Assembly (NCBI GenBank): GCA_963930775.1
Contig: OZ005691.1
Span: 9,731,000-9,794,999, forward strand
Length of the DNA stretch: 64,000 nucleotides
Origin: Cliona cf. orientalis
Lineage: Eukaryota; Porifera; Demospongiae; Clionaida; Clionaidae
Direction of reading: 5' to 3'
Each line of letters begins with the position of its first letter. Position 1 is the stretch's first letter. Below the pieces are notes generated by a model, which saw only the letters and a program-made list of their open reading frames with translations, had not been told where the DNA came from and ran no database searches. Positions 10,561 through 64,000 of the stretch are shown piece after piece. Both the position numbers and the translations under genes were made by a program.

Positions 10561-10796
10561 ATATCATGGATGTGTATCATGATAATTATAATATAAGTAT
10601 CATGGATCTCTCATGATGTATATCATGACGTGTATCATGATGTGTATCATGAGAGGATTTCTTCATGGATGTGCATCATGACAAGTATCATAATATTATG
10701 GTGTGTATCTTGACGTGTATCATGATGTGTATCATGATATTATGTATCATGGATGATCATGAATGTGTATCATGATGTTATCATGATATTAATAGT
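10561..10796. repeat. TGTATCATGA minisatellite
   Basis: A degenerate repeat of TGTATCATGA / TGTGTATCATGATG with many palindromic ATCATGAT cores. A similar array is at 44127-44352, in the same place relative to the downstream gene relic. The two arrays therefore belong to one duplicated block. Confidence 0.85.
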
Positions 10797-12022
10797 TGTT
10801 GGATGTGGCCCAGGAGCAAGTACTTAGATATAATATTATGCAATTGGAACAGTTGATCTAATTCCACTATCAACAGGTTTGTTTGGGTAACCATGCACGT
10901 TAACTTAGTAGCTAATCGATCACCATTCCTCCTTGCTGCCTGCATGTAACTTTTCCCATGCAATGTCATAATAACACACTATTGTAATCTATGCAGTCCC
11001 ATGTGGAAATGACCCCCGTCAGAACGGAGGTACATACACCTCTAAGCTGAACACTTACTAGCACTAAAGCTGTTTTCCAGTGTATACGGAAATAATATGT
11101 GCCAATGTTAGTGGACGCTCACTGACCCCTGTCTGAATGGTGGTACGATGCAGCAATGTGGGAGAATCTGAATAATATTATATGTACGACTGTGGTGTTG
11201 AATTTACTGGACAAGATTGTGACAGCATCATTGAGCACCGTGCATTGTCAGGGTTCTATCTAGAAATTTTGGTTTGGGGTGGAAGGGGGCGTGGCACTTT
11301 CATGCACAGCCCCCTCCTCCAAACCATTAAGTATTAGTTAGACACTGTTTAGGAGGTTTCTGTGTGACTTAGAAGACTGAAGGACTCCATAATATAGAAT
11401 CCCGAGCGAAGCGAGGGTTCTATGAGAGCCCTGAGGTCTTCTAAATCACATTGAACCCGACTAAACAATATCTAACAAGTTTAGATCATATAGATTTGTA
11501 TTGCTAGAGCCAGAGGGCAAAACTTGTAGGTGACGATGAAAATTTTGTAGGTAACTATGAGATATATATATACCTGTCAGTAGCCAATCAAATTGCAGTA
11601 TTTGTACATGTTGCAGCTCTGATCTAGTGTGTTTTAGGTACAACATGTATACTCTTTGACATAATTCAGAAGAATGCTATTGCTACTCTTCTTTGGGGGA
11701 GAAGCTGGGTGCTTTGGGAGGGAAGCTTCCCCCCTGCCCCCCCCCCCTATAGATAGAACCCTGATTGTCTAGTCCAAACTGCAATAATGGGATCTGTATG
11801 GATGGATTTGGTACATTTACCTGCGAGTGTGATCTCGGATGCTATTGCGACGTTGAGATTGATGATTGTTTAACAGCTGGATGCCAGAATGGAACATGTG
11901 AAGATTTAGTCAATGGCTTTCATTGCCTGTGCTACCCTGGATGGACTGGATCACTCTGTGTAGAAGACATAGATTATTGTGGATTTGATCCTTCCCCTAA
12001 TGGATCGCTTTGTTATTCATAA
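10797..12022 (+). pseudogene. Relic 1: truncated RX fragment split by a MITE
   Basis: The 3' end of a DomX exon (near 10797-10875, with the TTGGAACAGTTGATCTAATT stretch) is followed by its donor, a degenerate intron, and the start of an EGF exon at 10997. The EGF part is frameshifted several times, interrupted by an inverted-repeat element at 11249-11763, and resumes at 11769. It ends after the fifth EGF repeat start at 12022. It has no promoter, N-terminus or TM exon. Relics at 28459 and 44359 begin with the same remnant, so the truncation predates duplication of the block. Confidence 0.85.
11249..11763. mobile_element. MITE with CAGGGTTCTATCTA ends
   Basis: Terminal inverted repeats read CAGGGTTCTATCTA at both ends. 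The element is flanked by the 5-bp duplication ATTGT (11244-11248 and 11764-11768), and the interrupted EGF sequence rejoins exactly when it is removed. The centre has the palindrome-like CCGAGCGAAGCGAGGG. No ORF of note. Superfamily is uncertain; the CAGGG ends are hAT-like but the duplication is shorter than 8 bp. Diverged relatives appear near 37855-38215 and 46070-46265. Confidence 0.8.
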
Positions 12023-12205
12023 ACACATTAAAACATGTCTCAGTTTATGCCTAACTGGCATGCCCTATGTTGGGAATTCGATAACATAATATCTTAAAGT
12101 AAATTTGCTAGCTACGTACCACAGTGTGAAAATCGAATTTAAGTGCTAGTAAGTGTTCTGCGTAGTCAAATGAGATTTATATTTGAATAAAGAGCTCAAT
12201 TAAGT
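12023..12205 (+). promoter_or_regulatory. GPCR-type 5' flank stranded before AG1
   Basis: This stretch is closely similar to 59158-59318, directly upstream of AG2. Landmarks are CATGCCCTATGTTGGGAATT and AATAAAGAGCTCAATTA. The similarity stops at about 12200, where RX type A flank begins (GTGGTAAGCATCGTTAG). It marks a recombination junction between a GPCR-type upstream region and RX-type 5' sequence. Type A flank continues to 12368. Confidence 0.75.
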
Positions 12206-12368
12206 GGTAAGCATCGTTAGTTATGACATTAGCTACAGTATGATAATGCAAGAATTATCAAACATATAATAGCTATACTTGAATGATTTATAATGTGGCA
12301 TTAAACCTTTAGTTGATATGAATGTGAGATGTTGGTTATTAATTTGATAGTCCATATCAGACGAAAGA

Positions 12369-15300
12369 ATGGAGTGCTACTGGATGCTCATACTACTGCC
12401 AGTCTCTATGGTCCCTCCCAGTCTCTCCTTTGAAACTGGAGCACCACAAGCTGCCTGTCAAACCCTAGCACCAGATGCCACTCGACATGGAGCTCAACCA
12501 CAAGTTTCGGAAGTACCTTACATACTGAATCTAAGTGCATTGTATGATCAAGAAACTGATCGAATGGTCTACATCCCGGACATAGTCTACAATGGTAGGA
12601 TAAAAAATAATTATTAATATACAGTAATTATTATGACATTATACACAAGACAGTTCCTTGTGCCGTTGGTTTCCATAATAATATTATTACCGAATTTACT
12701 TTTAAATTATATAGGCATCATCATGTATATAGCTAGTGCTAGTATGTAATACTTTGTTAATCACTCGACACTATAGCTATTGTTGATTGTTGATACGTGG
12801 ATGTTCTCAAGCCACTGTTACAGTTGCCAATCTTTTCTCATACTTTATTTACCAAATTTTATATAATAATATTATTACTTGTGATTCTTGCAGTTGTCCT
12901 TGAGTCCACAGCAGCTGCTCCATCATTCCGAGGATTCTTGATCCAGGCTAGACTGGTCGCTGATGACACAACTGTTGTAGGACAATTTGAGGAACCACCA
13001 GCAGGAGGGGAGTATCGATACGGATCATGTACCAAAAGAGAGGTAGAGAATATGTTCACTAACTCTTAGAGTGTCTTACTCAAACCCTAATTCCGTGTAA
13101 CATTTTTAATGCCTAACATTTTGTTGATTTTTGGGATCATTAATTGCAGGGTTCAGTGACACACACTAGCCGGAGTGAAAAATCCACACTAGTCATACCA
13201 TGGAGGGCACCTTCAAGTGGTACTGGAACAATCCACTTTGGGTAGGTCAAAAGTATAATCAGTGGTGCAGTGATACTGTGGACACTATGGTAATTAACCC
13301 TCGCCACAAAGCGTAGGCAGAGGATTAATTGGCAATCGTTTGGTGATTTTTTGTCCCTCCTGTATTAAATGGTAAGGATCGAGGGAAAGTACGCATTTGA
13401 GGTATACCCGGGATCAATGAAGAGTGGTCATGTAAAGTCCTGCCCAGTGGTGTAGTGGTGTGCAGCTGTTGCCAGTCTGTGTTCACATGGCACCTACCTC
13501 ACTGAGTCAGCTACATGACTCATTAATTGCCATTCTGTGCCTTGCTAGTCACTCGTCAATGCAGTGACAGTGTAAACAGGCAGTGGCTCTCAAGTGCATA
13601 ATTCAGTTTACAGAGGCTGTCAGTGTATATAGTCGCATAGCCTGGGGTGCCTTTCCATCTACTCCTACATAAATCATGCACTGACTCTAAAGAAAACAGC
13701 AATAGAACCCTGTTCAGGTGCAGGGTATGTGGCTAGTTCAATACTCCTGATATTGAACAGGCATACACAGTGAGATATGAGGGCTCTGCACTCCTCTGCA
13801 TTCATTAATACAGCACTTTATCCATCAATAATCCATACTGAAAAGAACATGCAACTTGAACTGGCTACCTTAATTTAATGGTATTATGTAAGTATTATGG
13901 CCAAATAAAATTTAATGATGTCATGCAAATATATAGCTACTTAATAAATTGTCGATAATATGTGATACTTGAATGATGGTACACTGTAAACTGGCTCTAG
14001 CAGAACTATAATAATATTATGCAGCAGCACATGCACCGCAATCTTTCTTTGGGGACTGTTAGTATCATCTATACTCTGTATATTTATTATCATTGCATAG
14101 GTATGCTGTTGTTCAAACTAGACAACTTTATTGGGCAAATCAACAAAGTGTTACAATTGAAGAAAGACGTAAGTTCTCTTGCTTAAATAACAGTGGCATG
14201 ATGCAATATTTTCAATCATTGTTTGATTTTAACCAATAATTTCATTTTCATACTATTGAATAGCATGTGAGCTACCATCTTATGTTAATCGACGGCTTAA
14301 CTCCTGTGTAAGACAATGTCCACTCTTTTTCTTTGGAAATCATACAACGGGACTGTGTCAACCATGTAAGCTACCAGACTTTACGGTGAGGGATGACAAT
14401 AATTGCATTGAAGTTAGATATTATTTTTTGCAGTTCCGGATGTATTACCCAATGGTGTACAGGCTGACGCCACTGCCTACTTTGGTAGAATTGTAACAAA
14501 TGCTACACTTGGAACAGAAGCTTTCCGTTTCAGAATTGTTATAGATCCAAGCAGATATGGTGGTGATCTTGATGCCATTATCACAGTTATTAACCGTGAC
14601 AACACAGTTCTTTCAATCTTTAGACTCAGTGACGATCAAAGTGCAAGGACATTTACATTTATCGGCGGCATTAATGCAGCGAATGCTTCAGGTTTGCTCC
14701 CCAGTGAAATCAGAGTACTTGAAAATGGACTAGTAGTCTTTGAAGATTTTGTCATCTATCGACAAGCTCCACCTCCTGAGTTGGAGATACCGATCACTCT
14801 GGAATTTGATTTGATCATAATAGTTATTGGACGTGGAGGAACCACTACCATACAGACTGATTTTGCAGTTGGAACAGTTGATCTAATTCCACCATCACAA
14901 GGTGTGTATGATCATTATAATAATATTATAGCTATAATTATGCCCATTCCTCTTGATCTTTGCTGTCTGCATGTAAACTTTCCCATGCAATGTCATAACA
15001 ACACACTTAGTCTATTATCATCTATGCAGACCAATGTGCAAGTGATCCTTGTCTGAATGGAACATGTGAAAATTTAGTTAATGATTTTCATTGCCTGTGC
15101 TACCTTGGATGGACTGGATCACTCTGTGATACAGACATAGATTATTGTTCATTTGATCCTTCCCCTCACGGACCATGTGATGACACTGGAGCAGTTGGTT
15201 GCAATGATGATAATTCCACATACATATGCACATGTGTCAACGGCTTCACCGGTATCAACTGTTCACAGGATATTGATGACTGTGATCCCAATCCCTGTGA

Positions 15301-18300
15301 GAATGGTGGCAACTGTACCAACTTTTTGTTTGGTGTTTTTGAGTGTGAGTGTCCACAGGGATATTCTGGTGATACATGCGCTACAGACTCAACCCCATGC
15401 AACCCACAGCCTTGTCTGAATGGAGGAACTTGCAGTGACCTCGGACAAGGCATGTACTCATGCAGCTGTGATGAAGGATTTACTGGACAAGACTGCATTA
15501 TCGATCTTGATTTTTGTGATTCCGATACTTGCTTCAATGGAGGCACTTGTATTGAAGGTGTAGGTACAAGTATCACGTGTAATTGCACTCAAGAATTTAC
15601 TGGAGATAGCTGTAATATGCCATTAATGTTTTGCACCCCAGACACTTGCCAAAATGGTGGTACATGTGATGACTTTGGTGGTTTAATTATCACTTGCTCC
15701 TGTGCCAATGGTTATGATGGAACGATCTGCGACCAAGATGATCCAGATTATGTTGCTTGTACCGCTGACCTCTGCCTCAATGGAGGAACATGTGTGGAAG
15801 AATTTGGCCCAGATTCTAGCTGCAATTGTACAATGGGATTTGATGGAGACAGATGCGAGAACGACCTCCCATTCTGCCGACCAGATTCTTGTCTCAATGG
15901 AGGCACTTGTGTTGAAGGTCGTGGTGCCCTGACAAGCTGTAACTGCGCGGAAGGGTTCAAAGGGGATCAATGTGAAATTGATCTCTCATTTTGCCAACCA
16001 GACTCTTGCCTAAATGGAGGTATTTGTGTACAAGGTTATGGAACCTTGACAACTTGCAATTGTACAGATGGATTTGACGGTGATGAATGTGAAACTGACT
16101 TACTGTTCTGTCAACCAGACACTTGCCTCAATGGAGGCACTTGTGTTGAAGGCTATGGGACAGACACTACTTGTAACTGCACTCAAGAGTTTGCTGGAGA
16201 TCACTGCAATAAGTCGTTAGAGAATGGTGGAAATTGTACTAACTTTTTATTTGGTGCCAACTCGTGTGCTCCGTCTGAGCCGTGCAGTGATGAAATCGTA
16301 TGTTCCAGAGGAATGTATAATTGTAACTGTTTGTGCATTGCTCAGTGTCCACTTTTCACGTTCGGTAACCACACAACAGGATATTGCCAACCATGTAAGT
16401 TTGTCAATAATAGCATGAGTTTATGTATATATAGTTAGTCACGATACAACAATGTTATGGGAACAGTAATGGTAACAGTATTTCAGAGGTGCCCATTAAA
16501 AAAATCTTGTTTACTTTGAAATGCAGTTCCAGAACCCTATGGTGGGGTACAGGCTAATGCTACAGCTTATTATGGCAGCGTAAGTGTCAATACTGCAAAT
16601 GGAACTGTTGTCTTTGCATTTCAATTGATCATCAATCTTGGACGATTTGACAATGATCTTGAATACATTGATGTATCACTGGTACAGAGAAATTATCTTT
16701 CGGAGAAAATATTCAGCTTTAGTAATTACCAGCAGGAACGCCACTTCTCAATCAAAAAACATGGAGGTATTGATGCAGTCAATGCATCAAACACTTTCCC
16801 CGAAATTACACTTATCAACAACAGAACAGTGATCTATGAAGATTTCGTTATCTATAGCCAGGACAGTAATTTCTTCGTCAGTAGCATAAACCTCCCATCT
16901 AGGGTCGACATTGACCTTAATGTGGTGGTTTTAGGGATTAATACCGGAAATTTTGAAGAACGCACACCATTTGCAGATGCAATTGTAACATTAATCCAAG
17001 ATCTACCTCAAGGTTAATCTGAGTTCCTAGCCTATTATAGTGATATTAATAATAATATTAAATAATTTACCACAGATAGGATCTGGTGTCAATCAGATAT
17101 TGATGACATATGGGGTATTGCATGGCCTATCACTTTAAACAGCTCTAGTGCATCCCAGCCGTGTCCAGGAATCAACACTACAGGTAAATTTATAATTATT
17201 CCGTAGTACATTTCTCATCTAAATTAAACATAACTTTCCGATAGGGCTTGCTAATCGTTACTGTGACGGTGGTGGCTACTGGAGGGAGGTTGATGTGATA
17301 GAGTGCTCATCAATAGAGATCATGGAACTTCAAAATCAAGTGAGTTACCTATAATACAGTAGTCACTATTTTTGACACAATCGCCATAATAACAAAATAC
17401 CTATTAGTATAAGTTGAAGGTGTATACCATTTCACCAGTCCTAGCCTCTAAATACAGGCTGAGGTCATTTTAAGTTCAGAGGAGCAGGTGACAGAAATTG
17501 CTGAGCTTACGCAGCAGCTTGCTCAAGCCACTCAGCCACAAAATCTGTCACTGCTACCCCACGATCTTCAAACATCCAGCGAAATACTCTCTACAATAGT
17601 GGGTGTTCTAGAGGCAAATAATGTAACCAGCAATGTAAGGATAATCATAACAAATGAAGATGTTTAAACAATCTCTCTACCCTGTGTACAGAATGTGATC
17701 GATGTTTTCAACAATGTTTTGGATGACAGCAACAGAGAGGGATGGAGAGTTTTGCAAACAGTAAGCACCTCTGTATGCTCACAAATTTTGACCTTTTTTG
17801 GAAATGTGCTCTATAGAATGGTATGATGATGGCAAGTGAGATGTTACTCCAAAGTGCTGAGCAGTATGCATTGTTGGTGGCCATGTCAGCAAACATGACT
17901 GAGGAGGAGGAGGGAGTGCATGTGTTCAGACAGTCACGACAAAACATTGGTTTGTGACCACGTGACTATTAATAGTGTTAAGGTTTCATAAATTGAAGGG
18001 CTGACTACAGAAGTAAAGTGGTCTAGCATAAAATTAAAATCTTGAGTTACATAGACCCCCTAATCTTGAATAACACTATTCTAAATTTTGGACAATTTAG
18101 TAGAGTAAAGCATATTTTTTTGTACTATTTGGACAATTCCACATTTTCAATTTTGGGTTTGACCACTTTACTTCGCAGCCTTTCAATTTTCCATTCCTAT
18201 GCATGATACCAAATTTCCATTCCATTCCACAGCAATCACAGGCAGACAATACAACAGGCCACCATCAGCTGATATTCATTTCCCCAATCCTTCTGACCTG

Positions 18301-19245
18301 ATCAATTTCACCAAGGGTGAAGACACTTCAAACATTAGAATTCAACAAACTCCAATCAGGGAGAGATTTGAAGAGTTGAAGGAAGGTGGTAAGTCGTGTA
18401 GGGGAATACCTTAGTGTCACTAAAGTTAATTACACCTTAATTTAGCGAATTTGGCGACCTTTACCCAATTCGCTAAATTAAGATGAGGCCAAATATTTTT
18501 CGAGATGTATTATTCATGAAATTGTATTGTGGTACATGCAAAATCGCTAAATTAAAGTGCAGCTAAATCCTCTCTCCTGAAAATCGCTAAATTAAAGTGC
18601 AATTAACTTTAGTGACACTAAGGTATCAATCGTAAATTTAATATCTTAGAGAATCTTCCTGTTTCGTTTACTCTATTGCGAAATCTTCCCGTGAATAATG
18701 CCTTCTCCAACACACAAACTCAAGCAAGCAACTGTCCTAGTATTGAAAATATGCTGAAGACCAGTGCACAAAACGTGTCACCAACCGTGACCTCAGATGT
18801 GATCATTGGTCAAGTTGGAGCAACAAGAAAGGATTGGAATTCACCATCTTTGCAGACTAATCCAATCGGCTTAAACTTTACCTTTGAATCAACTCAAAAG
18901 AACATCTCTGACTACCACTATCATTGTGTCCATTGGAGCTTCTCAGACCCGTAAGTTATGTGCAGCTGTTGCACATTTTGGCTATCCAACTATCACTACA
19001 GTGAAATAAAATTTCATCTAACAATTACCGTATAGCGGGAAATTTTCGAGGGAGAAAACTTTCGCGGATCGGTAGGAAAGGAGCATTTCGCGGAGAAAAA
19101 TTTCGCGGAATGTTAAAACTGGTCGCATAATGGGTGTGGCATGCCTAGAATTTCGTGGAGAAAACTTTCGCGGATGGCTGAAAAATCGCGAAATTCGTGA
19201 AAGTTTTCTCCCTCGAAAATTTCCCGCTATACGGTATTAAAAAGT

Positions 19246-19276
<31 letters not shown>

Positions 19277-19972
19277 GCTAAAGCCCCCCAAGCCCCTCCT
19301 ACCTGTCCACACCTTTGGTGTATACATGGTTGTTTACCTAAGGCCTCCCTGAGTCAGCATTTCAGTATCACAATTAAGTAGCAACTAACTTAAGTATGCA
19401 ACGTTGACAAGCTGAGGGAGAGGGCCTAGGCTAGATAGCTATATACATTTTGCATCACAGAATTGGGAATGGAAGCTGGACCAATGATGGTATGATGACT
19501 AATGCTGTTGACATCATTGATGGGAATACTACCATGATTCAGTGCTCTAGCACTCACTTGACTAGCTTTGCTGTACTGGTCAGCGTAGCAAAAGGACTGG
19601 AGGTACATAGATCTAGATTATGGTCAAAACTATCATATTTTTAAAATTTAATGTGTATAATAGGATGTTAAAGAAGCTGAACGTACAGCACTCCAAGCTG
19701 TATCGTACATTGGCTGCTCAGTTTCTATTGTATGTTTGACGCTCACCGTGATATTCTTCATTTGGCGAGGGTATGGGCATTACTCAGCTAATAGTGTCGT
19801 TGTTATCTTATCTCCTTTTTCAGGAAACTGTTCAATTCAGAAAACGTCCTCTTTTTTATTCATTTTAACCTTGCTGTATCATTGTTAATTGCCATTCTTG
19901 TGTTTGTACTTGGTATTGAAACAGCTTCAAAGAATGCGGTTAGCTAGTGTATTGTGATCAAGTCCTCATCTT

Positions 19973-20044
<72 letters not shown>

Positions 20045-21872
20045 GTCTCCCTCTCTCTTCTTCCTTTTTCTCTTTATCTTTTTTCTCTTACTTTATGATA
20101 TCACATCACCTAGATTGGTTGTGCATTTGTGGCAGCACTGCTTCACTACCTATTTCTCTCTGCCTTTTGTTGGATGCTCTGTGAGGGAATTATGCTATAT
20201 CTATTGCTGCACATCGTATTCAGTAACATGGCCAAGAAGCGATGGCCCTTCCTTCTCATTGGATATCGTAAGTATTGTTACATATGGCCATAATATTAAA
20301 TTTTAATGATATCACTGTTTTGATTGATAACCACCATGCAGTGACTCCACTGCCAATAGTGATCATAACAGTTGGCATAAGGTTCAAAGACTACGGAGTG
20401 AAGGATACCTGTGGAACTCTCCTTTAGTGAGTCAATAATCTTCCTATTGCTTGTCATTTTGAAATTAGCATCTGTTATTGATTTTAAGTTGCTGGTTGTC
20501 AATACAAAATGGAACTATTTTTGGCTTTGTAGGACCCATGTTGATTATCATAGCAGTAAGTTTAATGCATATTATAATCTACTGTGGTTACAATCTTTCG
20601 ATTTTTATTTTGGGATGTCACAGATAAATGTTCAATTTATGATGCTTGCCTTGCGTGTTGGTTGGCGGTCAAAGCAGCGTTCACTCACTAAATTAGGAAG
20701 CAGTGACCATACTTTGAAAGATGTTCAAAAATTTGGAAAGTAAGTATAGCTACAATAACAATAACAGTACGTAGAAGAAGATTATTATATGGGGGGGGGG
20801 GGGGGAGGGGGGAGGGTGGAGGGGGGAGGAGTAACCTCGTCCCCAGACCATCCCATGTGACATTGAAAACATGGAGATGGCCTGGGGATGAGGCTAGGGG
20901 GGAGGGGGGGGAGGGGATCATTAAATTTAGGCCATAAATTTTTTTGTTCACTCCCACTAGTCTTACATTTACATGTAATACACATCCACACATGTAGCTA
21001 CCAACATTCATGGCAATTAAAGTAATGAATTCTCTCAGATTTAACTGTTCGTTTGTTTTGTCCATCGTACCCAGATTTGTGTTTATTGGATCACTAGTCC
21101 TTCTACCACTGCTTGGTCTAACCTGGGTCTTTGGTATCCTAGCTGTCAATGCTAACTCAACGTTGTTTGCATGGCTCTTCACCATCTTTAACTCTACTCA
21201 GGTAAATTAAATGTGCTAACTCACTTGTCATTACCACTGTGCTGTATGTACTACAACACAATTTGGTATGCACAGATCTTAAAATTTACAGTACGGCAGT
21301 AGCTAAGTTTGGCATAATAATAGTAACTGTTATTATGATACATACACCTTCATCTTTACATAGGGATTATTCATCTTTCTTTTTCATGTTGTTCAAAGCA
21401 ATGAGGTATGCTAATTAATAATTCACATTCATTAAAATTGTCAGCTTATATAATAATATCATAGCTGTCCGTGAGCTAACTATTACCATATAATATTCTG
21501 TAGTTACGAAGTAAGGTTGGTTCAAAACTGTCCTTCAAAAGAAAAGCGACTCAGAGGTCAATGACATATGCCAGATGGCGAAGCACGGTAAGAGTTATCT
21601 AAATTATTGCATTCGATTATCAATACAAAACTAATGGAATTTACAGCCACAAGGCAGTGTTGCTACACTCTCTGGTATTGGACTCAAGGAAACAAATATA
21701 GTAAGTTTTGATTACATTGCATGGGCATCTTTGTATAGTCACAACTTCTTCACAGATTGACCAAAGTAAAGTATCATCTTTTGCTCTTGCCACTGAGTGT
21801 GACAACCTTGATGACAACGATCTCAAAAGTGTTGAAATGGCTCTGGAAAAATCAGATCATGGTTTTGTTTGA
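12369..21872 (+). CDS. AG1: chimeric Reeler-EGF adhesion GPCR
   Basis: A 27-exon model of 1734 aa. Exons: 12369-12594, 12894-13042, 13150-13241, 14101-14168, 14264-14365, 14434-14901, 15030-16394, 16527-17012, 17076-17183, 17245-17339, 17458-17634, 17692-17760, 17817-17949, 18233-18388, 18650-18950, 19461-19602, 19664-19770, 19824-19938, 20114-20267, 20342-20426, 20489-20555, 20624-20739, 21075-21201, 21364-21405, 21504-21587, 21647-21700, 21756-21872. Order: signal peptide, Reeler (to ~178), Cys linker, DomX (213-368), ~10 EGF repeats, second linker (ends ~823), second DomX (824-985), HormR (986-1053; YCDGGGYW), GAIN, GPS, 7TM (~1379-1650), 84-residue tail. The GPS has CVHW, NGSWT and HLTSF; predicted self-cleavage follows Leu1365 (between 19560 and 19561). 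TM6 carries LLPLLGLTWVFGIL. The family couples adhesion to G-protein signalling at the plasma membrane. The RX half and GPCR half meet near 16215-16330. Exon 23 might start earlier, at 21039, in frame. Confidence 0.85.
18409..18623. mobile_element. TA-flanked MITE in an AG1 intron
   Basis: Terminal inverted repeats CCTTAGTGTCACTAAAGTTA / TAACTTTAGTGACACTAAGG, with TA on both sides. AG2 has the unoccupied site (GGGGAATATCAATCG at about 63666-63681), so the insertion is precise and later than the AG1/AG2 split. Internal direct copies of AATCGCTAAATTAAAGTGCA are present. No coding capacity. Confidence 0.9.
19028..19234. mobile_element. TA-flanked MITE with CCGTATAGCGGG ends
   Basis: Terminal inverted repeats start CCGTATAGCGGGAAATTTTC and continue for about 40 bp, with TA at 19026-19027 and 19235-19236. 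The interior repeats AAAACTTTCGCGGA in both orientations. It lies in the intron between the two GPS exons of AG1. Confidence 0.85.
19246..19273. repeat. Poly-G tract
   Basis: A run of 28 G just after the MITE, inside an AG1 intron. A second G-rich stretch lies in a later intron at 20791-20835. Both could form quadruplex-like DNA. Run lengths in raw sequence of this kind are unreliable. Confidence 0.9.
19972..20040. repeat. (TC)n microsatellite
   Basis: An almost pure CT dinucleotide run of about 68 bp in the AG1 intron between the exons for TM2 and TM3. It serves at most as a long pyrimidine tract far upstream of the acceptor at 20113. Confidence 0.95.
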
Positions 21873-22498
21873 GCTAACTTAAAACTTCATAACAAAAAAG
21901 CAAAGATATTATTATTATCTTTTAGTGTGCTTTCTTGTATGATAATATCAATACATCATAATCTGTATACTATTACGATATAAGCCTTATCACAGTCTTA
22001 TTAACCTATTTGATATATGTCAGTCAGACAGCAGAATATTATTATCGTGTCAGGCAAATTAAGGCATGCAAAAGTTAATTGTATAGTTGTTAATAAATTC
22101 CTTTTGGATGCAGTTAGCTAGCAGTGGGCAGTGGATATACTAAATTTTGGAGATGAATACATGGAAGATATCTGAACCATTGACCCAGGGGTGTGTAGGA
22201 ACCACAAGACGAGATTCACCGCTATTTCACGCTCCCGTGACCCTAAATTATACACATGCACACTAGGGGGTGGGGCTAATTAGCCAGCCACCGTGCAGTC
22301 AGTGTAGGTGACTCCGAGATTGGTTGCAAGCTGGAAGCTGGTTTTGCTACACTTTATAGCAGCTGCTATTTGCGTCTCTGCAGTATCTGGTCGCTCTACA
22401 GGTGCTCCTGCTCAGGCTTGATCTGATCTATCACAGCCCAGGCGCCCATGGAGCTTCTCCAAGGTCAAGTCAAGTGAGATAGACATGAGTGTTTTTGG
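21873..22498. other. AG1 3' flank
   Basis: The first 250 bases are AT-rich, with a possible polyadenylation hexamer AATAAA near 22092. From about 22185 to 22498 is a GC-richer stretch without a convincing ORF that I do not see elsewhere in the window. It abuts the orphan RX exon at 22499, so it may be filler or an insertion at a recombination junction. Confidence 0.4.
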
Positions 22499-22737
22499 CA
22501 AGGATAGAGAAGAGAAAGAAATATGATGTCCAAGGCAAGTCAAGAATATTTTTCACAATGGCTTCAGCCATTCAATCACTTAGACTGTGTGTACTATAAT
22601 ATTATTATGTATACTATAGGGACTGAGTCATTGACGGAAACCCTGGCATTTGGATGGGAAGCTTGGATGATAAGCATGGAAGCTCCTCAAAACAGGATCC
22701 TATAGAGCTTACTTCTGCTACAACTTTTAAGCAGTAG
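22499..22737 (+). pseudogene. Orphan RX exons 8 (3' end) and 9
   Basis: Bases 22499-22534 match the last 36 bases of the RX TM exon (RIEKRKKYDVQ), followed by the same GC donor. Bases 22620-22737 match exon 9 up to its stop. A 4-bp loss in exon 9 (GACGGAAACC versus GACGGTTAAAAACT) shifts the frame. There are no upstream RX exons here: AG1 lies directly before it. The fragment looks like the tail of the RX gene whose 5' half now forms the N-terminus of AG1. Confidence 0.85.
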
Positions 22738-23475
22738 CAACATGCATACTAGTGTCGTTCCTGATCATGATTTTGATAATTAGTGTACAGTAACTGTGCT
22801 TATTTTCTGTTAGTATTAATTTTCTTACCAGTTTCTGATATTTAGAGAGTGCCCTGTGCCAGCAGGACCCATTATTGTATGCATCTTGTACTTTTGTTTG
22901 TGTAGCTACTTATACTTCCAAAAATGATCGACGACTAGTTGTCTGAGCTGTTTGCCGCGTCAAGTGCTTCCTCCATTTGACCACAGACTCATGTCACATG
23001 ACACAAAGTTTTCTTTTTTAAGCACACATTGTGTATGCGCACTACTTCCTAGAGCAATTGAAAAGCCCTGAATCTTCAAGTAGCTGCCTATTATTCAAAA
23101 CATTATTCACGAATATAGTTGGCCAGGCCTAATGATGATGTTGTTTACCTTTTAATTGTATGTTGTAGAATATTCAAAGCATCACAATGAAATTATTGTA
23201 AATATTCATGTTTACACAACACTTGAATTTTCACTTTATGGGTGTGGTTGCATGGTATGGATATTTCATGACGTTAAGTAGTAAGCATCGTTAGTTATGA
23301 CGTTAGCTATGGTGCAAGAATGACATTGTCAAATTTACAACATATAATATAATAGCTAGCTTTACTTGAAAGATTAGTGTAGCTAATTGGCAGTAAACCC
23401 TCAGTTGATGTGAATGTGAGATTCTGGTTATTAATTCGATATAGTCTACCCAACTATTGTATATCAGACGAAAGA
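22738..23475 (+). promoter_or_regulatory. Intergenic block and type A flank before RX2
   Basis: Contains the shared 3' block (AGAGAGTGCCCTGTGCCAGC near 22846), a block shared with the spacers before RX3 and RX4 (CTTCCTCCATTTGACCACAG), and the type A flank from about 23233. No ORF here is conserved between the spacers. Confidence 0.5.
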
Positions 23476-29608: not shown

Positions 29609-30745
29609 ATGGAGTGCTACTGAATGCTCATACTACTGTCAGTCTCTATGGTCTCTCCTGCTCTCTCCTTTAACACTGGAGCACCACAAGCTGCCTGTCA
29701 AACCCTAGCACCAGATGCCACTCAACATGGAGCTCAACCACAAGTTACCGACATACCTTATGTACTGAATCTGATGGCATTCTACAATCCAGTAATCTAT
29801 CGGATGGTCTACATCCCGAACACAGTGTACAACGGTAGGATTTACACACAATGCAGGCACCTGTGTTGAAGGCTATGGAAGACAAACATCTTGTAACTGT
29901 ACAGACGGATTTGAAGGAGACAACTGTGAGAATGATCTTATGTTCTGTCAAGCAGATTCCTGCTTCAATGGCGGCTCTTGTGTTGAAGGCTTAGGTGCTG
30001 ACATTGATTGCAACTGCACTCTTGGATATGAAGGAGAGAGATGTGAACTGGATGCATGATCCCAGTTACACAGCATGTGGAGTAGATGTCTGTGATAATG
30101 AAGGAATATGTGTGGAAGACTTTGGACCAAGCTTTACCTGTAGTTGCCGAAATGGATTCAGTGGAGCTTTGTGTGAAATTGACCTCAACTTCTGTCAGTC
30201 TGGTACTTGCCTGAATGGAGGAACATGTATTGAGGGCATTGTATCCACGACTTCATGCACCTGTGTACAAGGCTTCACTGGCCAAAACTGTGGTACTCCA
30301 TTGGAAGGTAAGACTCTTATTCATTTATTTGATGGCATATTACTTCAATAAATATCTACTGTGCTCACAGATGTAACAGAGAATCCTTCAAGTGGAGTCG
30401 ATCTTGATCCTATCATCTAGGCAGTAATTGGCTTTGCAGTTGGCATGATTGTGACAGTGATTTTATGTCTTCTCCTATTCGCTTGTTGCTACTTCACATG
30501 CTTCTCGTCAAGGATGGAGAAGAGAAAAAAATATGATGTCCAAGGCAAGTCAAAAATAAATTTTCACAATCACTGCAGCCATTCAATCACTTAGACCGTG
30601 TGTACTTTAATTATGTTATGTAGGGACTGAGTCATTGACAGTTAAAAACTCTGGCATTTGGATGGGAAGCTTGGATGATAAGCATGGAAGCTCCTCAAAA
30701 CAGGATCCTATAGAGCTTACTTCTGCTACAACCTTTAAGCAGTAG
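29609..30745 (+). pseudogene. RX pseudogene, internally deleted
   Basis: Exon 1 (29609 to about 29834) has TGA at 29621-29623 instead of the fifth codon TGG. Shortly after its donor the sequence jumps at about 29848 into the 3' part of an EGF exon, so exons 2-6 and most EGF repeats are gone. About four EGF repeats remain to 30307. A 4-bp GCAT insertion near 30053 shifts the frame. The TM exon (30371-30544) has TAG at 30418-30420 for TGG. Exon 9 (30624-30745) is intact. The deletion junction has short similarity (AATGCAGGCACC-like), fitting microhomology-mediated loss. Confidence 0.9.
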
Positions 30746-59005: not shown

Positions 59006-59333
59006 ATTGCACACTTTATGTGGGTACCAAATTTGTAGAAAGAGATAATTATTATTAACAGTTATCATGTAGTTAAATAATATTATGTTTGTGGCATCAT
59101 GAAGTATTTAGTTACTTACTTGAGTTTATTTTGCTATAATGCATTTTGTTGTTCATAAGTCTATCTCAGTTTATGCATAACTGACATGCCCTATGTTGGG
59201 AATTCGACAACATCTTAAACTATAATTTGCTATCTACGTACCACAGTGTCAAAGTGCTATTAAGTGTTCTGCATGCATAGTCAAGTGAGATTAACATTTG
59301 AATAAAGAGCTCAATTAGAGCAAGCCAAAAAAT
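59006..59333 (+). promoter_or_regulatory. AG2 5' flank (GPCR type)
   Basis: AT-rich flank whose second half (59158-59318) matches 12023-12200 before AG1. It ends at the AG2 start. No RX flank sequence is present, so this is the pure GPCR-type upstream region. Confidence 0.55.
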
Positions 59334-62300
59334 ATGAGCTCCACTCTAATAATTTGTCTTATCTTCATGACATTTCAGTCAATACTGGTGAATTGCTACT
59401 CGTCAGGAGTACTGTCACAATCCTGTGATACACTTTCACCAAACTCAAGTTACCACAGAGAACTGGAACAGATGAATAATGTACCCTTTGAAATCGACAC
59501 TAGTGTGTTTAGAAGTCCATTCACTGATGAACTGCACTACAGCCCTAATTCAACCTACTGGAGTAAGCCAAAATTTATATCGCTTTGAGCTCAGCATGCA
59601 GCTGCAGAGTATGAGGAGTAGTATTCTCTAAATTTTCTCACTTGCAGTCACGCTCAGACCAAAAAGATGTTCCATATCCTTTCAAGGGTTTCTGATCCAG
59701 GCTACACTGGCTGAGGATAACTCAACCATTGTGGGGTCATTTGCTTCGCCAAGTCATGGAGATGACTATCAACTTAGTTCATGCCCAATACAAGAGGTAC
59801 ATCAATATTATAATCATTGTTCCAAGAATTCAGCATTAGAATACAATTATATAGCTACGTGATGTAGCACAAGATGAGTGGCTTAGCTATATGATAATAT
59901 AGTAATTACTTTTCCTTTAGGGCACAGTGACTCATTCATCAGACTCAGACAAGACATCGGTCAGTATTTTATGGACATCACCACCTGCTTCTACTGGGAG
60001 CATCAAGTTTAGGTAATCAGAAAAATTAATATTATTACTGATTAATAATTATCATTTTGGTATTAATTTTAAGTTTTACTGTTGTGCTATCAAACAATGT
60101 GTACTGGACTGATCAGGTGACAGCTGTACTGGTTGAAAGACGTAAGCCTTGCTCTTCGATTATTATAATATTATATCCTTTGCACGATTAAAATGTTCAT
60201 AGAATGTCCCGTGCCACTCTTTTGGGATAACACAAGCAGCTCCTGTGTCACTCAGTGCCCACTTTTCACATTTGGCAACCACACACTAGCACATTGTCAG
60301 CCATGTAAGTAGCTAGTATAGCTAATTTAACTTTAAATCTGTGGGATTAGCACAATTTTTGAATATTATCCTATGCAGTTCCCAGTATCTTACATAAACA
60401 TGTGCAAGCTGATGCCACAGCCTATTATGGTAGTATTGAAATTGGAGCTCCACTGGGGACAGATATCTTCAAATTTAGGATAGTCATTAATGTCAGCAAT
60501 TTTGGAAATGACCTCGATGCCATTGTAACTAGCTTGGTACGTAGCAACCTCGTTGAGAAGACATTCAGTTTCAGTGATGGTCACAACCAGAGAACATTTT
60601 CCATTGCCTTCAATGGAGGTATTGACGTGGTGAATGCATCACGAGTGTTCCCGGAAATCAGGCTCATTGACAACAGACTGGTAGTGTTTGAAGACACAGT
60701 CATCTACCAAGAGCCACCCTCGACCAATTCCGAGTTGGAGCTACCTATAACACATAATTTTGATTTAAACTTGATTGTCATCGGAAGAGGTTCTGTTGCT
60801 ATTCAGCAGTTCTTTCCATTTGCCGTTGGCACCGTAGCACTGACTCTACCATCCGGTGAGAGCCAAATGTTTAACAACAGTTTTGCACCAGGGAATGCTA
60901 ATTTCGGGGACCTTAATTGCTCCCAAATCAACGGTTGTGAGCCTAACCCTTGTCAGAATGATGCTGAATGCACAAATAATGACTTCTTTGAGTGCTTCTG
61001 CAATGAAAGCTGGATGACAGAACAATGTGAAGCCATCTTGGACTATTGTGCCTCAGATATGCCTATCCATGGACTATGCAATGAAGACTCAGGGCCAGGC
61101 ACTGTTGGCTGTATTGATGAAAGTCCAATGTATTCATGCACATGTGTTACTGGTTTCACAGGATATAATTGCTCTGAAGATATTGATGAATGTGATCCTA
61201 ATCCCTGTCAAAATGGAGCAGGCTGCACAAACCTCTTGCACGGATCATTCGAGTGTTCTTGTAATGTTGGATGGACTGGTGAATTGTGTAATGTAGATAT
61301 TGACTACTGTGCATCTGATTCATCTTTCCATGGCCCTTGTGACGATATTGGGGCCACAAAGTGTACTGACAGCAATTCAACTTACTTTTGCACCTGTGCA
61401 TCTGGATTCACTGGCTATAACTGTTCAGAAGATATCAATGAATGTGATCCTAATCCGTGTCAAAATGGTGCAGTTTGTATAAACCTGTTACATGGCTCAT
61501 TTGAATGTTCTTGTAATGTTGGATGGACTGGTGAACTATGTGAGGTTGACATTGACTACTGTGCATCTAATTCATCTCTTCATGGGCCTTGTGACGATAT
61601 TGGAGCCACCAATTGTACTGACAGCAACTCAACATACTTTTGCACCTGTGCATCTGGATTCACAGGCTATGACTGCTCAGAAGATAATAACGAATGTGAT
61701 CCTAACCCTTGTCAAAATGGAGCAGTTTGCTCAAACTTCTTACATGGCTCATTTGAGTGCTCTTGTAACATCGGATGGACTGGTGCACTATGTGATATAG
61801 ATATTGACTACTGTGCATCTGATTCATCTCTTCACGGCCCTTGTGACGATAATGGAACCACCAACTGTACTGATAGCAATTCAACCTATTTATGCACCTG
61901 TTCTACTGGGTTCACAGGCTACGACTGCTCTGAAGACATCAATGAATGTGAACTCAATCCTTGTCAAAATGGAGCAGTTTGCACAAACCTCTTACATGGA
62001 TTATTTGAGTGTTCTTGTAATGTTGGATGGACTGGTGAATTATGTGAGATCAATATCGACTATTGTGCATCTGACTCATCCCTCCATGGACCTTGTGATG
62101 ATATCGGAGCAACTACTTGCACAGATGGAAATTCAACCTACGAGTGTTCCTGTGCTGTCGGGTTCACTGGCTATAATTGTTCAGAAGATATTGACGAATG
62201 TGATCCAAATCCTTGCCAGAATAGCATAAATTGTACAAATCTTCCGTATGGGTCATTAAATTTTGAGTGTCACTGTTATCCTGGATGGACTGGTCAGCTT

Positions 62301-64000
62301 TGTGACATAGATATTGACTACTGTGCTTTTGACTTGACTCCTAATGGCCCTTGTCATGCTCTTGGAGCAAGCAATTGTACAGATGGAAATTCAACGTACT
62401 CATGTACATGTGCTGTTGGTTTTACTGGCTACAACTGCTCAGAAGACATCAGTGAATATACCACAGATAGGATCTGGTGTCAGTCAGATATTGACGATAC
62501 ATGGGGTATTGAATGGCCTATCACTTTAAACAGCTCAAGTACATCCCAGCCATGTCCAGGAATGAATACCACAGGTAAAAAATTAATTATTCTGTAGTGT
62601 ATTTCTCATCTAAACTAAACATAATTTTCCAATTAACAGGATTTGCCAATCGTTACTGTGACGGGGATGGTTACTGGAGGGAGGTTGATGTAATGGGTTG
62701 CTCATCAGTAGAGATCATGGAACTTCAAAATCAAGTGAATTACCTATATACTTATATACAGTAATTTAGCACAATGGCCATAATAATAGTGTATGCCTAT
62801 TACTTAGTTTAAAGTGTATACCATTTCATTGGTCCTCTAAATTGCATATACAGGCTGAGATCATTTTTTTAAGTTCTGAGGAGCAGGTGACAGAAATTGC
62901 TGAGCTTACGCAGCAGCTTGCTCAAGCCACTCAGCCAGGCAATCTGTCACTGTTACCCCACGATCTTCAAACATCCAGCGAAATACTCTCTACAATAGTG
63001 GGTGTTCTAGAGACAAACAATATAACCAGCAATGTAAGGATTATCATAGCAAATGAAGATGTTTAAATACTAACATGTGTTCACAACAATCTCTCTACCC
63101 TGTGTACAGAATGTGATCGATGTTTTCAACAATGTTTTGGATGACAGCAACAGAGAGGGATGGAGAGTTTTACAAACAGTAAGCACCTCTGCTCACAAAT
63201 TTTGACCTTTTTAGGAAATGTACGAGACATTATTTGCTCTATATAGAATGGTATGATGATGGCAAGTGAGATGTTACTCCAAAGTGCTGAACAGTATGCA
63301 TTTCTGGTGGCCATGTCAGCAAATATGACTGAGGAGGAGGGAGGAGTGCATGTGTTCAGACAATCACGACAAAACATTGGTATGTGACCATGTGACCATC
63401 AATAGTGAAAATATTATCCAGCTTTCACAAATTTTTCATTGTCCACCCTCCATTCCAATGCATGATAACAAATTTCAATTCCATTCCACAGCAATCACTG
63501 GCAGACAATACAACAGGCCACCATCAGCTGATATTCATTTCCCCAATCCTTCTGACCTGATCAATTTCACCAATAGTGATAATAATATATCAAACATTAG
63601 AATTCCACATATTCCAATCGGGGAAAGATTTAAAGAGTCGAAGGAAGGTGGTAAGTCATGTAGCTGGGGGAATATCAATCGTAAATTTAATATCTTAATT
63701 TTATATAGAGAACCTTCCTGTTTCATTCACCCTTTTACGAAATCTCCCCGTTAGTAATGCCTTCTCCAACACACAAACTCAAGCAAGCAACTGTTCTACT
63801 ACTGAAAATAATATGTTGGAGACCAATGCACAATATGTGGCACAAACTGTGACCTCAGATGTGATTATTGGTCAAGTTGGAGCAACAAGAAGGGGTTGGA
63901 ATTCACCATCTTTGCAGACTAATCCCATCGGCTTAAACTTTACCTTTGAAACAACTCAAAAGAACATCTCTGACTACCACTATCATTGTGTCTACTGGAG
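59334..64000 (+). CDS. AG2: Reeler-EGF adhesion GPCR, cut by window end
   Basis: Exons 59334-59562, 59648-59796, 59921-60012, 60074-60141, 60203-60304, 60379-62574, 62640-62734, 62854-63033, 63110-63178, 63247-63379, 63492-63650, 63709 to beyond 64000. Order: signal peptide, diverged Reeler (SFQGFLIQAT, GTVTHSSDSD), Cys linker (TQCPLFTFGNHT), DomX, 12 EGF repeats in about five and a half two-repeat units, HormR (RIWCQSDIDD, YCDGDGYW), GAIN, and the first GPS Cys (HCVYW); the 7TM part lies outside. Exon 6 fuses DomX, EGF and the start of HormR, which are separate exons in AG1. A donor (CCG|GTGAGA, 60856) and the ancestral acceptor (62466) lie inside it, in frame, 1611 bp apart, so the EGF array may be spliced out in some transcripts. 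From HormR on it closely matches AG1. Confidence 0.85.
61180..62450 (+). repeat. Tandem 252-bp EGF-pair units in AG2
   Basis: About five copies of an 84-codon unit that encodes two EGF repeats: one of NECDPNPCQNGA type and one of DYCASDSSLHGPC type ending FTGYNCSEDI. Units are close enough at DNA level to suggest recent duplication and possible copy-number variation. Confidence 0.85.

What the first reader, a model, noticed from the sequence alone, without database searches (positions are those of the whole stretch)
12023..22737. AG1 is a natural chimera: an RX receptor whose 3' half was replaced by an adhesion GPCR
Seen: GPCR-type flank (12023-12205, as before AG2), then RX-type flank and RX exons 1-7, then a junction at about 16215-16330 where the last EGF is followed by a stray ENGGNC piece and the GPCR linker (CPLFTFGNHTTGYCQPC), then a second DomX and the whole GPCR half, then orphan RX exons 8-9 at 22499-22737. 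The 27-exon model still totals 5205 bp in frame (1734 aa). The result has two linker-DomX modules and couples the single-pass receptor ectodomain to 7TM signalling.
Basis: seen in the sequence. Interest (0 to 1): 0.85.

Follow-up and report, generated by a model that had tools for sequence, protein, structure and literature searches.

The report
Mosaic adhesion receptor with swapped ectodomain
One gene in an animal (probably sponge) receptor cluster is patched together from at least three neighbouring gene types, so that a sensing head typical of simple single-pass receptors is read in one frame with the signalling half of an adhesion GPCR; a comparable patchwork receptor is known in mammals.

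Summary
AG1 is a real mosaic gene. Exons 1-6 are RX-type: dS 0.23-0.30 to 9 of 9 complete RX copies, 1.71 to AG2. Exons 9-27 copy AG2's GPCR half: dS 0.22, dN/dS 0.23.

Three corrections. (1) The stretch after the RX EGFs (16220-17063, linker and second DomX) did not arrive with the GPCR half: synonymous sites are saturated against AG2. EGFs plus linker in one exon is the ordinary module boundary in a third gene, MM. (2) The recent join to AG2-type DNA lies in 63-nt intron 8, before the HRM exon. (3) AG1 keeps an AG-type 5' flank found at three places in the genome and, at 22311-22496, a broken copy of the first exon of the gene that follows AG2. It is better read as a copied AG2 block with a replaced ectodomain, set inside an RX gene.

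RX EGFs and linker 2 share one open exon. The GPCR halves show 0 frame-breaking indels in 2249 bp, against 21 in 1157 bp of intron. No transcript data existed. Closest precedent: EMR2.

The parts
10784..12004 (+). Fragment of an RX gene (end of DomX exon, start of EGF exon), cut off at about 12004; RX likeness is interrupted at 11239-11763
   Evidence: blastn pieces to RX1 and RX5, 68-87%
12038..12202 (+). AG-type 5' flank; 3 places in the whole genome, the other two before AG-type exon 1 (AG2 and an AG relic)
12199..12368 (+). Truncated RX-type 5' flank; switch from AG-type at about 12198-12202 with a short shared ATTA(A)
12369..14901 (+). Exons 1-6, RX-type: signal peptide (by eye), Reeler domain, linker 1, DomX1
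   Evidence: model; Reeler E=2e-22; dS 0.23-0.30 to 9 of 9 complete RX copies, 1.71 to AG2 on the 4 exon pieces compared
15030..16394 (+). Exon 7: RX-type EGF run to about 16217, then a one-cysteine remnant of an EGF (ENGGNC), a six-cysteine EGF, and linker 2, all in one open frame
16220..17063 (+). Middle segment: end of exon 7 with linker 2, intron 7, exon 8 (DomX2, 16527-17012) and most of intron 8; old against every partner tried
17064..21872 (+). AG2-like signalling half with exons 9-27: HRM, GAIN, GPS with HLT, 7TM, tail
21873..22310 (+). AG2-like 3' flank
   Evidence: 82% over 412 aligned bases
22311..22496 (+). Relic of exon 1 of RL, the Reeler gene that follows AG2; start codon absent, stop in frame, indels of 2 and 7
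22497..22917 (+). RX tail: last codons of exon 8 (after the TM), exon 9 and 3' end; not part of the AG1 model
59164..64000 (+). AG2, source-type gene for the signalling half (24 exons, 1661 aa, ends 2727 bases past the window end)

Best explanation
AG1 is a working, mosaic adhesion GPCR gene made by recombination inside a cluster of Reeler/DomX/EGF receptors. Shown: segment borders, reading frame, splice sites, relative divergences, and constraint on the GPCR half. Inferred: order and mechanism. A block reaching from just before AG2 into the start of the next gene (RL) was copied into the array and landed in an RX gene, leaving RX pieces on both sides. Within this copy the part coding for the ectodomain, from just before exon 1 to the intron before the HRM exon, was exchanged for an RX-type Reeler-linker-DomX-EGF run joined to an old linker-DomX module of the kind seen in MM. 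The frame survived because one join is EGF to EGF inside an exon and the other lies in a phase-1 intron between the DomX and HRM exons. The product should work as other adhesion GPCRs do (recalled mechanism): the GAIN domain cuts itself at HL/T, the extracellular part stays bound, and when a ligand or a pull on the RX-type head removes or shifts it, the tethered segment (TSFAVL...) activates the 7TM. So what RX receptors sense through a single-pass protein is given G-protein output, possibly under the AG-type promoter flank that AG1 keeps.
For: Frame and splice sites. Segment map. Source of exons 1-6: dS 0.23-0.30 to 9 of 9 complete RX copies; 1.71 to AG2, on exons 1, 2, linker and DomX only. 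Source of exons 9-27: aa identity 90%, dS 0.218, dN/dS 0.23 to AG2. Independent age of the middle: pS 0.79 against 0.19; the DNA search beyond the first 70 nt finds only MM; EGF-linker exon as in MM. AG flank: 3 places in the genome, 2 of them followed by AG-type exon 1. RL relic. RX pieces on both sides. Constraint: 3 coding indels in 2249 bp, 0 frame-breaking; 26 indels in 1157 bp of intron (13 of 18 introns, those of similar length), 21 not multiples of three, so about 41 frame-breaking ones would be expected in the coding stretch without constraint, both branches together (arithmetic mine). One exon carries both RX EGFs and linker 2, and introns 7 and 8 are 132 and 63 nt, so splicing at the modelled sites cannot part them and there is little room for a second promoter with a signal-peptide exon. 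Domains. A phase-1 intron before the HRM exon fits the 3 outside relatives looked at, judged from AG dinucleotides (in the third, one of two possible acceptors).
Against: No RNA evidence was available. The junction leaves an EGF remnant with a lone cysteine, which could harm folding. The DomX tree does not reject DomX2 with AG2's DomX (p-AU 0.28), and a 60-base stretch of linker 2 matches AG2 at 83%, scoring about the same as its 86-base, 77% match to MM (60 and 62 bits), so the middle could be an old AG-lineage module. The MM likeness is itself split: the shortened linker is like MM module 1, the DNA hits are to module 2, and parts of DomX2 score best against RX. The RX tail is 93-95% identical to 7 of 7 RX copies compared, as alike as RX copies are to each other (93-96%, 15 pairs), although AG1/AG2 introns are 84% identical; so the tail was joined later, or homogenised, or is conserved, which a one-time story does not explain. 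DomX2 is a long branch (1.13 against 0.26 for AG2's), which could mean relaxed constraint.
Confidence: 0.6

Rival explanations
1. One reading: one RX gene whose 3' half (last EGFs, TM exon) was replaced by an AG2-type linker-DomX-GPCR block at about 16217, leaving its own exons 8-9 downstream.
For: RX flank, RX exons 1-7 and the rest of RX exons 8-9 lie in order around the block. Linker 2 has an 83% match to AG2 over 60 bases.
Against: DomX2 does not share AG2's recent ancestry. The AG-type flank upstream and the truncated RX flank at 12199 are unexplained. An RX fragment ending at 12004 already offers a left half for the RX tail.
Confidence: 0.15
2. AG1 is an old two-module GPCR gene; its two ends are kept similar to RX and to AG2 by continuing gene conversion, as reported for EMR2, and only the middle shows its true age.
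For: The middle is old against every partner tried (pS 0.67-0.79). Exons 1-6 are about equally distant from all 9 complete RX copies (dS 0.23-0.30), and the tail is homogenised. Known precedent.
Against: A conversion tract would have to span 5.4 kb with introns, the 3' flank and part of the next gene's exon 1, plus a separate 160-bp flank tract of similar divergence (5' flank 89%, 3' flank 82%, RL relic 88%, introns 84%).
Confidence: 0.18
3. AG1 is a pseudogene or dead recombinant.
For: Lone cysteine in the EGF remnant; long branch of DomX2; MITE-like inserts in introns 14 and 15.
Against: 27 open exons and 0 frame-breaking indels in the GPCR half against about 41 expected, while the RL relic of the same copy is broken.
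Confidence: 0.05
4. Assembly error in a repetitive array.
For: Tandem array with many similar copies.
Against: No 150-base window of AG1 exceeds 97% to another copy, the middle occurs once, no Ns, and reading frame and splice sites hold across the joins.
Confidence: 0.02

Closest known systems
EMR2/ADGRE2, the EGF-TM7 receptor chimera of mammals
   Same: An adhesion GPCR whose parts evolve in concert with different family members (CD97 and EMR3), per passages of PMC2720389 citing Kwakkenbos 2006; that paper itself was seen only as a reference entry
   Different: EMR2's partners are all GPCRs (recalled); AG1 joins a single-pass receptor's ectodomain to a GPCR half, with Reeler and DomX parts and an older module between
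Sponge adhesion GPCRs with HRM (Amphimedon queenslandica)
   Same: HRM, GPS and 7tm_2 in one protein; 40 Adhesion members, HRM in at least eight (passages of PMC4302439)
   Different: The Figure 4 legend lists EGF, Ig, fn3, SRCR and others; the word Reeler was not found in the main text
Ectodomain shuffling above a kept HRM/GAIN/7TM unit
   Same: PMC12716839 (passages) says HRM/GAIN/TM associations survived while new architectures arose, perhaps by duplication and domain shuffling; AG1's join is at that border
   Different: Here the pieces, relics and border sequences can still be read in one locus

Membership tests
Adhesion GPCR (7tm_2 with GAIN) | Seven-transmembrane domain of the secretin/adhesion class | tested here: met
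   PF00002 E=8e-48, residues 1388-1640
Adhesion GPCR (7tm_2 with GAIN) | GAIN domain and GPS motif | tested here: met
   PF16489 E=2e-14 and PF01825 E=5e-7
Adhesion GPCR (7tm_2 with GAIN) | Self-cleavage at HL/T and tethered agonist | not testable with these tools
   HLTSFAVL is present in AG1 and AG2; its meaning is recalled; cleavage needs an experiment
Adhesion GPCR with HRM | Hormone receptor motif before GAIN | tested here: inconclusive
   PF02793 E=1.2e-5 at 26.0 bits on the cut-out piece, just under the curated 26.2; not listed for the whole protein at E 0.001
RX-type single-pass receptor of this cluster | Reeler-linker-DomX-EGF ectodomain | tested here: met
RX-type single-pass receptor of this cluster | Own TM exon in frame | tested here: not met
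   The TM part of exon 8 is missing in AG1
EMR2-like chimera kept by gene conversion | Same mosaic borders in several species | not testable with these tools
   No relatives of this genome are held; DomX not found in genome contigs or viral contigs

The most novel reading that the evidence does not exclude
The 130-kb cluster is a receptor-building locus: phase-1 modules (Reeler, linker-DomX, EGF runs) are repeatedly recombined and capped with different outputs (single TM, a LamG-like end, or 7TM), in the manner of an allorecognition or immune receptor array, and AG1 is a rewiring event caught with its scaffolding in place, in which an existing recognition head gained G-protein output and an AG promoter. 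DomX would be a new extracellular domain family.
Probability: 0.2. Interest if true: 0.78.

Novelty: new variant of a known kind. Interest (0 to 1): 0.5.

Why it matters
New adhesion GPCRs are believed to arise by putting new ectodomains on a kept HRM/GAIN/7TM unit, but usually only the end product is seen. Here donor-type genes, joins, a truncated bystander exon and a leftover promoter flank sit close together, with a divergence clock (introns, synonymous sites) for each piece. That makes the steps of ectodomain exchange testable in one living species, and it asks directly whether a single-pass receptor's ligand can drive a GPCR.

Tried and rejected
DomX identity: no Pfam hit at E up to 5 for 4 of the window's 9 aligned DomX copies and linker 2; a PDB profile search gave 2 hits at E 0.5 and 0.97, taken as chance; the AlphaFold2 model had mean pLDDT 49.6, so no fold search was made. 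Relatives elsewhere: DomX alignment scans of genome contigs and viral contigs found none. DomX tree: the place of DomX2 is unresolved; grouping with DomX1 is rejected (p-AU 0.0005), grouping with AG2's DomX (0.28) or with AG2 and MM D1, D2 (0.42) is not. Assigning the RX tail to an RX lineage failed: 5' and tail identities among 6 RX copies are uncorrelated (15 pairs, rho -0.18), and the tail tree has no supported branch. In one search the exon-6 ends of the RX copies were set by hand and are not exact, so its indel counts are not used and I rely; the EGF alignments for RX3 and RXb (dS 1.4-1.6) are probably repeat misalignments, and the linker rows for RX5L, MM_a and MM_b are out of register; none of these are used. 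Microhomology at 22496/22497 is too short to argue from. In one search the AG1-MM comparisons are saturated too, so MM kinship of the middle rests and is not firm. Literature: searches 39 (53 papers with two of three terms, 20 listed), 40, 47 and 48 covered open PMC papers only; 'reeler domain' with 'GPCR' gave 3 papers, of which I read passages of PMC6208332 alone; there the Reeler gene and the GPCR are separate genes. Whether a Reeler-bearing GPCR is in print elsewhere I cannot say.

Full report
WHAT WAS CHECKED. The window lies at G000:C3:9731000-9794999 of an unnamed 216.8-Mb genome in 149 contigs. That it is a sponge is my inference from gene content; it was not tested. The exon model of AG1 was rebuilt from the sequence: 27 exons, 5205 bp, 1734 aa, every intron GT-AG. 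Pfam finds Reeler, EGF, GAIN, GPS and 7tm_2; HRM reaches E=1.2e-5 on the cut-out piece, 0.2 bits under its curated cut-off.

THE NEIGHBOURHOOD. Two genome searches with DomX1 and DomX2 each gave the same 16 places, all in one cluster, C3:9692531-9819934; a more divergent DomX-like stretch at two further places in the cluster was found by reading and tblastn. The cluster holds RX genes (Reeler, linker, DomX, EGF run, one TM), AG2 (such a head with HRM-GAIN-7TM), MM (Reeler, then EGF-linker exon and DomX exon three times, then EGFs and a LamG-like part read by eye), and genes in L033 and after AG2 (RL) with the divergent DomX-like part. Only AG1 and AG2 carry close copies of the GPCR half; the further matches on C6, C18, C7, C9 and elsewhere on C3 are pieces of 32-67% identity. 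Three of these outside relatives were looked at for up to about 3.5 kb upstream of HRM; reading their open frames I saw no Reeler or DomX, and some Ig-like stretches; no domain search was run on them. Reeler matches also occur on C7, C15 and C10; the nearest 7tm_2 match in the list is about 160 kb away (C15), but that list is cut and 150 of 271 candidates were scored.

SEGMENT MAP OF AG1. In 150-base steps against RX, MM, AG2, RL, L033 and other cluster sequences, and by blastn: AG-type flank 12038-12202; RX-type 12199-16219, with parts of introns 1 and 3 matching little or nothing; a middle 16220-17063 with only weak partners; AG2-type 17064-22310, apart from inserts in introns 13-15; RL exon-1 relic 22311-22496; RX tail from 22497. 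Upstream, an RX gene fragment ends at about 12004.

THE MIDDLE HAS ITS OWN SOURCE. Synonymous differences per site between AG1 and AG2 are 0.19 (0.155-0.228) over exons 9-27 and 0.79 (0.69-0.90) over DomX2. The last 17 codons of the linker have dS about 0.9 to AG2 (few sites), and a 60-base stretch there is 83% identical to AG2. A genome DNA search with 16150-17080 gives, besides itself, 11 EGF matches (10 RX, 1 MM) confined to the first 70 nt and two matches in MM module 2. In 3 of 3 MM modules one exon runs from EGFs into a linker; module 1, though not module 2 or 3, shares with AG1 the loss of the linker's first half. So the stray ENGGNC piece is the rest of an EGF standing before an ordinary module boundary; RX EGFs were joined to it at about 16217. 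The tree cannot say whether DomX2 is nearer AG2's DomX or MM's. That the middle is older than both halves is firm; that it is of MM origin is not.

WHICH GENE WAS THE RECIPIENT. The AG flank occurs at three places in the genome: before AG2, before an AG-type exon 1-2 relic at window -6374 to -5989, and in AG1, where RX-type flank takes over 167 bases before the start codon. Downstream, the AG1 copy of RL's exon 1 has no start codon, a stop in frame and two indels, while RL's exon 1 beside AG2 is open. This marks AG1 as the copy and AG2-RL as source-type. RX pieces on both sides of the block suggest that it landed in an RX gene. The order of block copying and ectodomain exchange is not known.

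THE JOIN BEFORE HRM. AG1 keeps an intron before the HRM exon, phase 1, and the outside relatives can be read the same way (acceptors judged by AG dinucleotides; the third has two candidates of different phase). AG2 does not: its EGF run reads in frame into what is the end of intron 8 in AG1. AG2 thus has a derived join at the same place, and the sharp start of AG1-AG2 likeness at 17064 may be owed to AG2's own change.

IS IT ALIVE. Between AG1 and AG2, coding exons 9-27 have 3 indels in 2249 bp, all of three bases; 13 of the 18 introns between them, those of similar length, have 26 in 1157 bp, 21 of them not multiples of three (5 introns with large length differences were left out). dN/dS is 0.23. 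Exons 1-6 against RX copies have dN/dS 0.37-0.52 in 9 of 9 comparisons. These figures mix both branches of each pair. As RX EGFs and linker 2 share exon 7, and introns 7 and 8 are 132 and 63 nt, upkeep of the GPCR frame is most simply explained by fused transcripts. RNA was not available.

LITERATURE. Passages read: PMC4302439, PMC12716839, PMC2720389, PMC6208332. PMC2720389 names EMR2 with CD97 and EMR3 as a case of concerted evolution by gene conversion; Kwakkenbos 2006 itself was not read. In the passages I read, none describes a Reeler-bearing GPCR; searches covered open PMC papers only.

VERDICT. The chimera is real and probably working.

Noticed in passing
60379-62574 (AG2 exon 6): A GTGAGA donor at 60856 and an acceptor ending at 62466 stand where AG1 has its exon 8/9 borders (sequence; positions counted by hand). 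The 1611 nt between them (the EGF run) are open and a multiple of three, so AG2's EGFs could be a retained, in-frame intron (exitron) that is spliced out in some transcripts.
   Followed up: partly
window -6603 to -5989 (L011): Relic of an AG-type gene: AG flank, exon 1 (53% aa) and exon 2 (45% aa), followed by an RX gene.
   Followed up: partly
L009 7159 to L010 5553: Multi-module gene MM: Reeler, three EGF-linker/DomX modules, EGFs and a LamG-like part.
   Followed up: partly
18400-18632 and 19021-19241: Two stretches with about 50-base inverted ends in AG1 introns 14 and 15 that have no AG2 match: MITE-like elements.
   Followed up: partly
1208-2382: Dense inverted and direct repeats within RX1's third intron (self-blast).
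   Followed up: no
29609-30742: RX exon 1 followed closely by RX TM and cytoplasmic exons, with no Reeler exon 2-4 or DomX match between: a shortened RX copy.
   Followed up: no
61109-62457: AG2's EGF run is built of repeats about 252 bases apart, unlike the RX EGF run (about 117-base steps).
   Followed up: no
22497-22740: The orphan RX tail in AG1 is as similar to RX copies (93-95%) as they are to each other, less diverged than the AG1/AG2 introns.
   Followed up: partly
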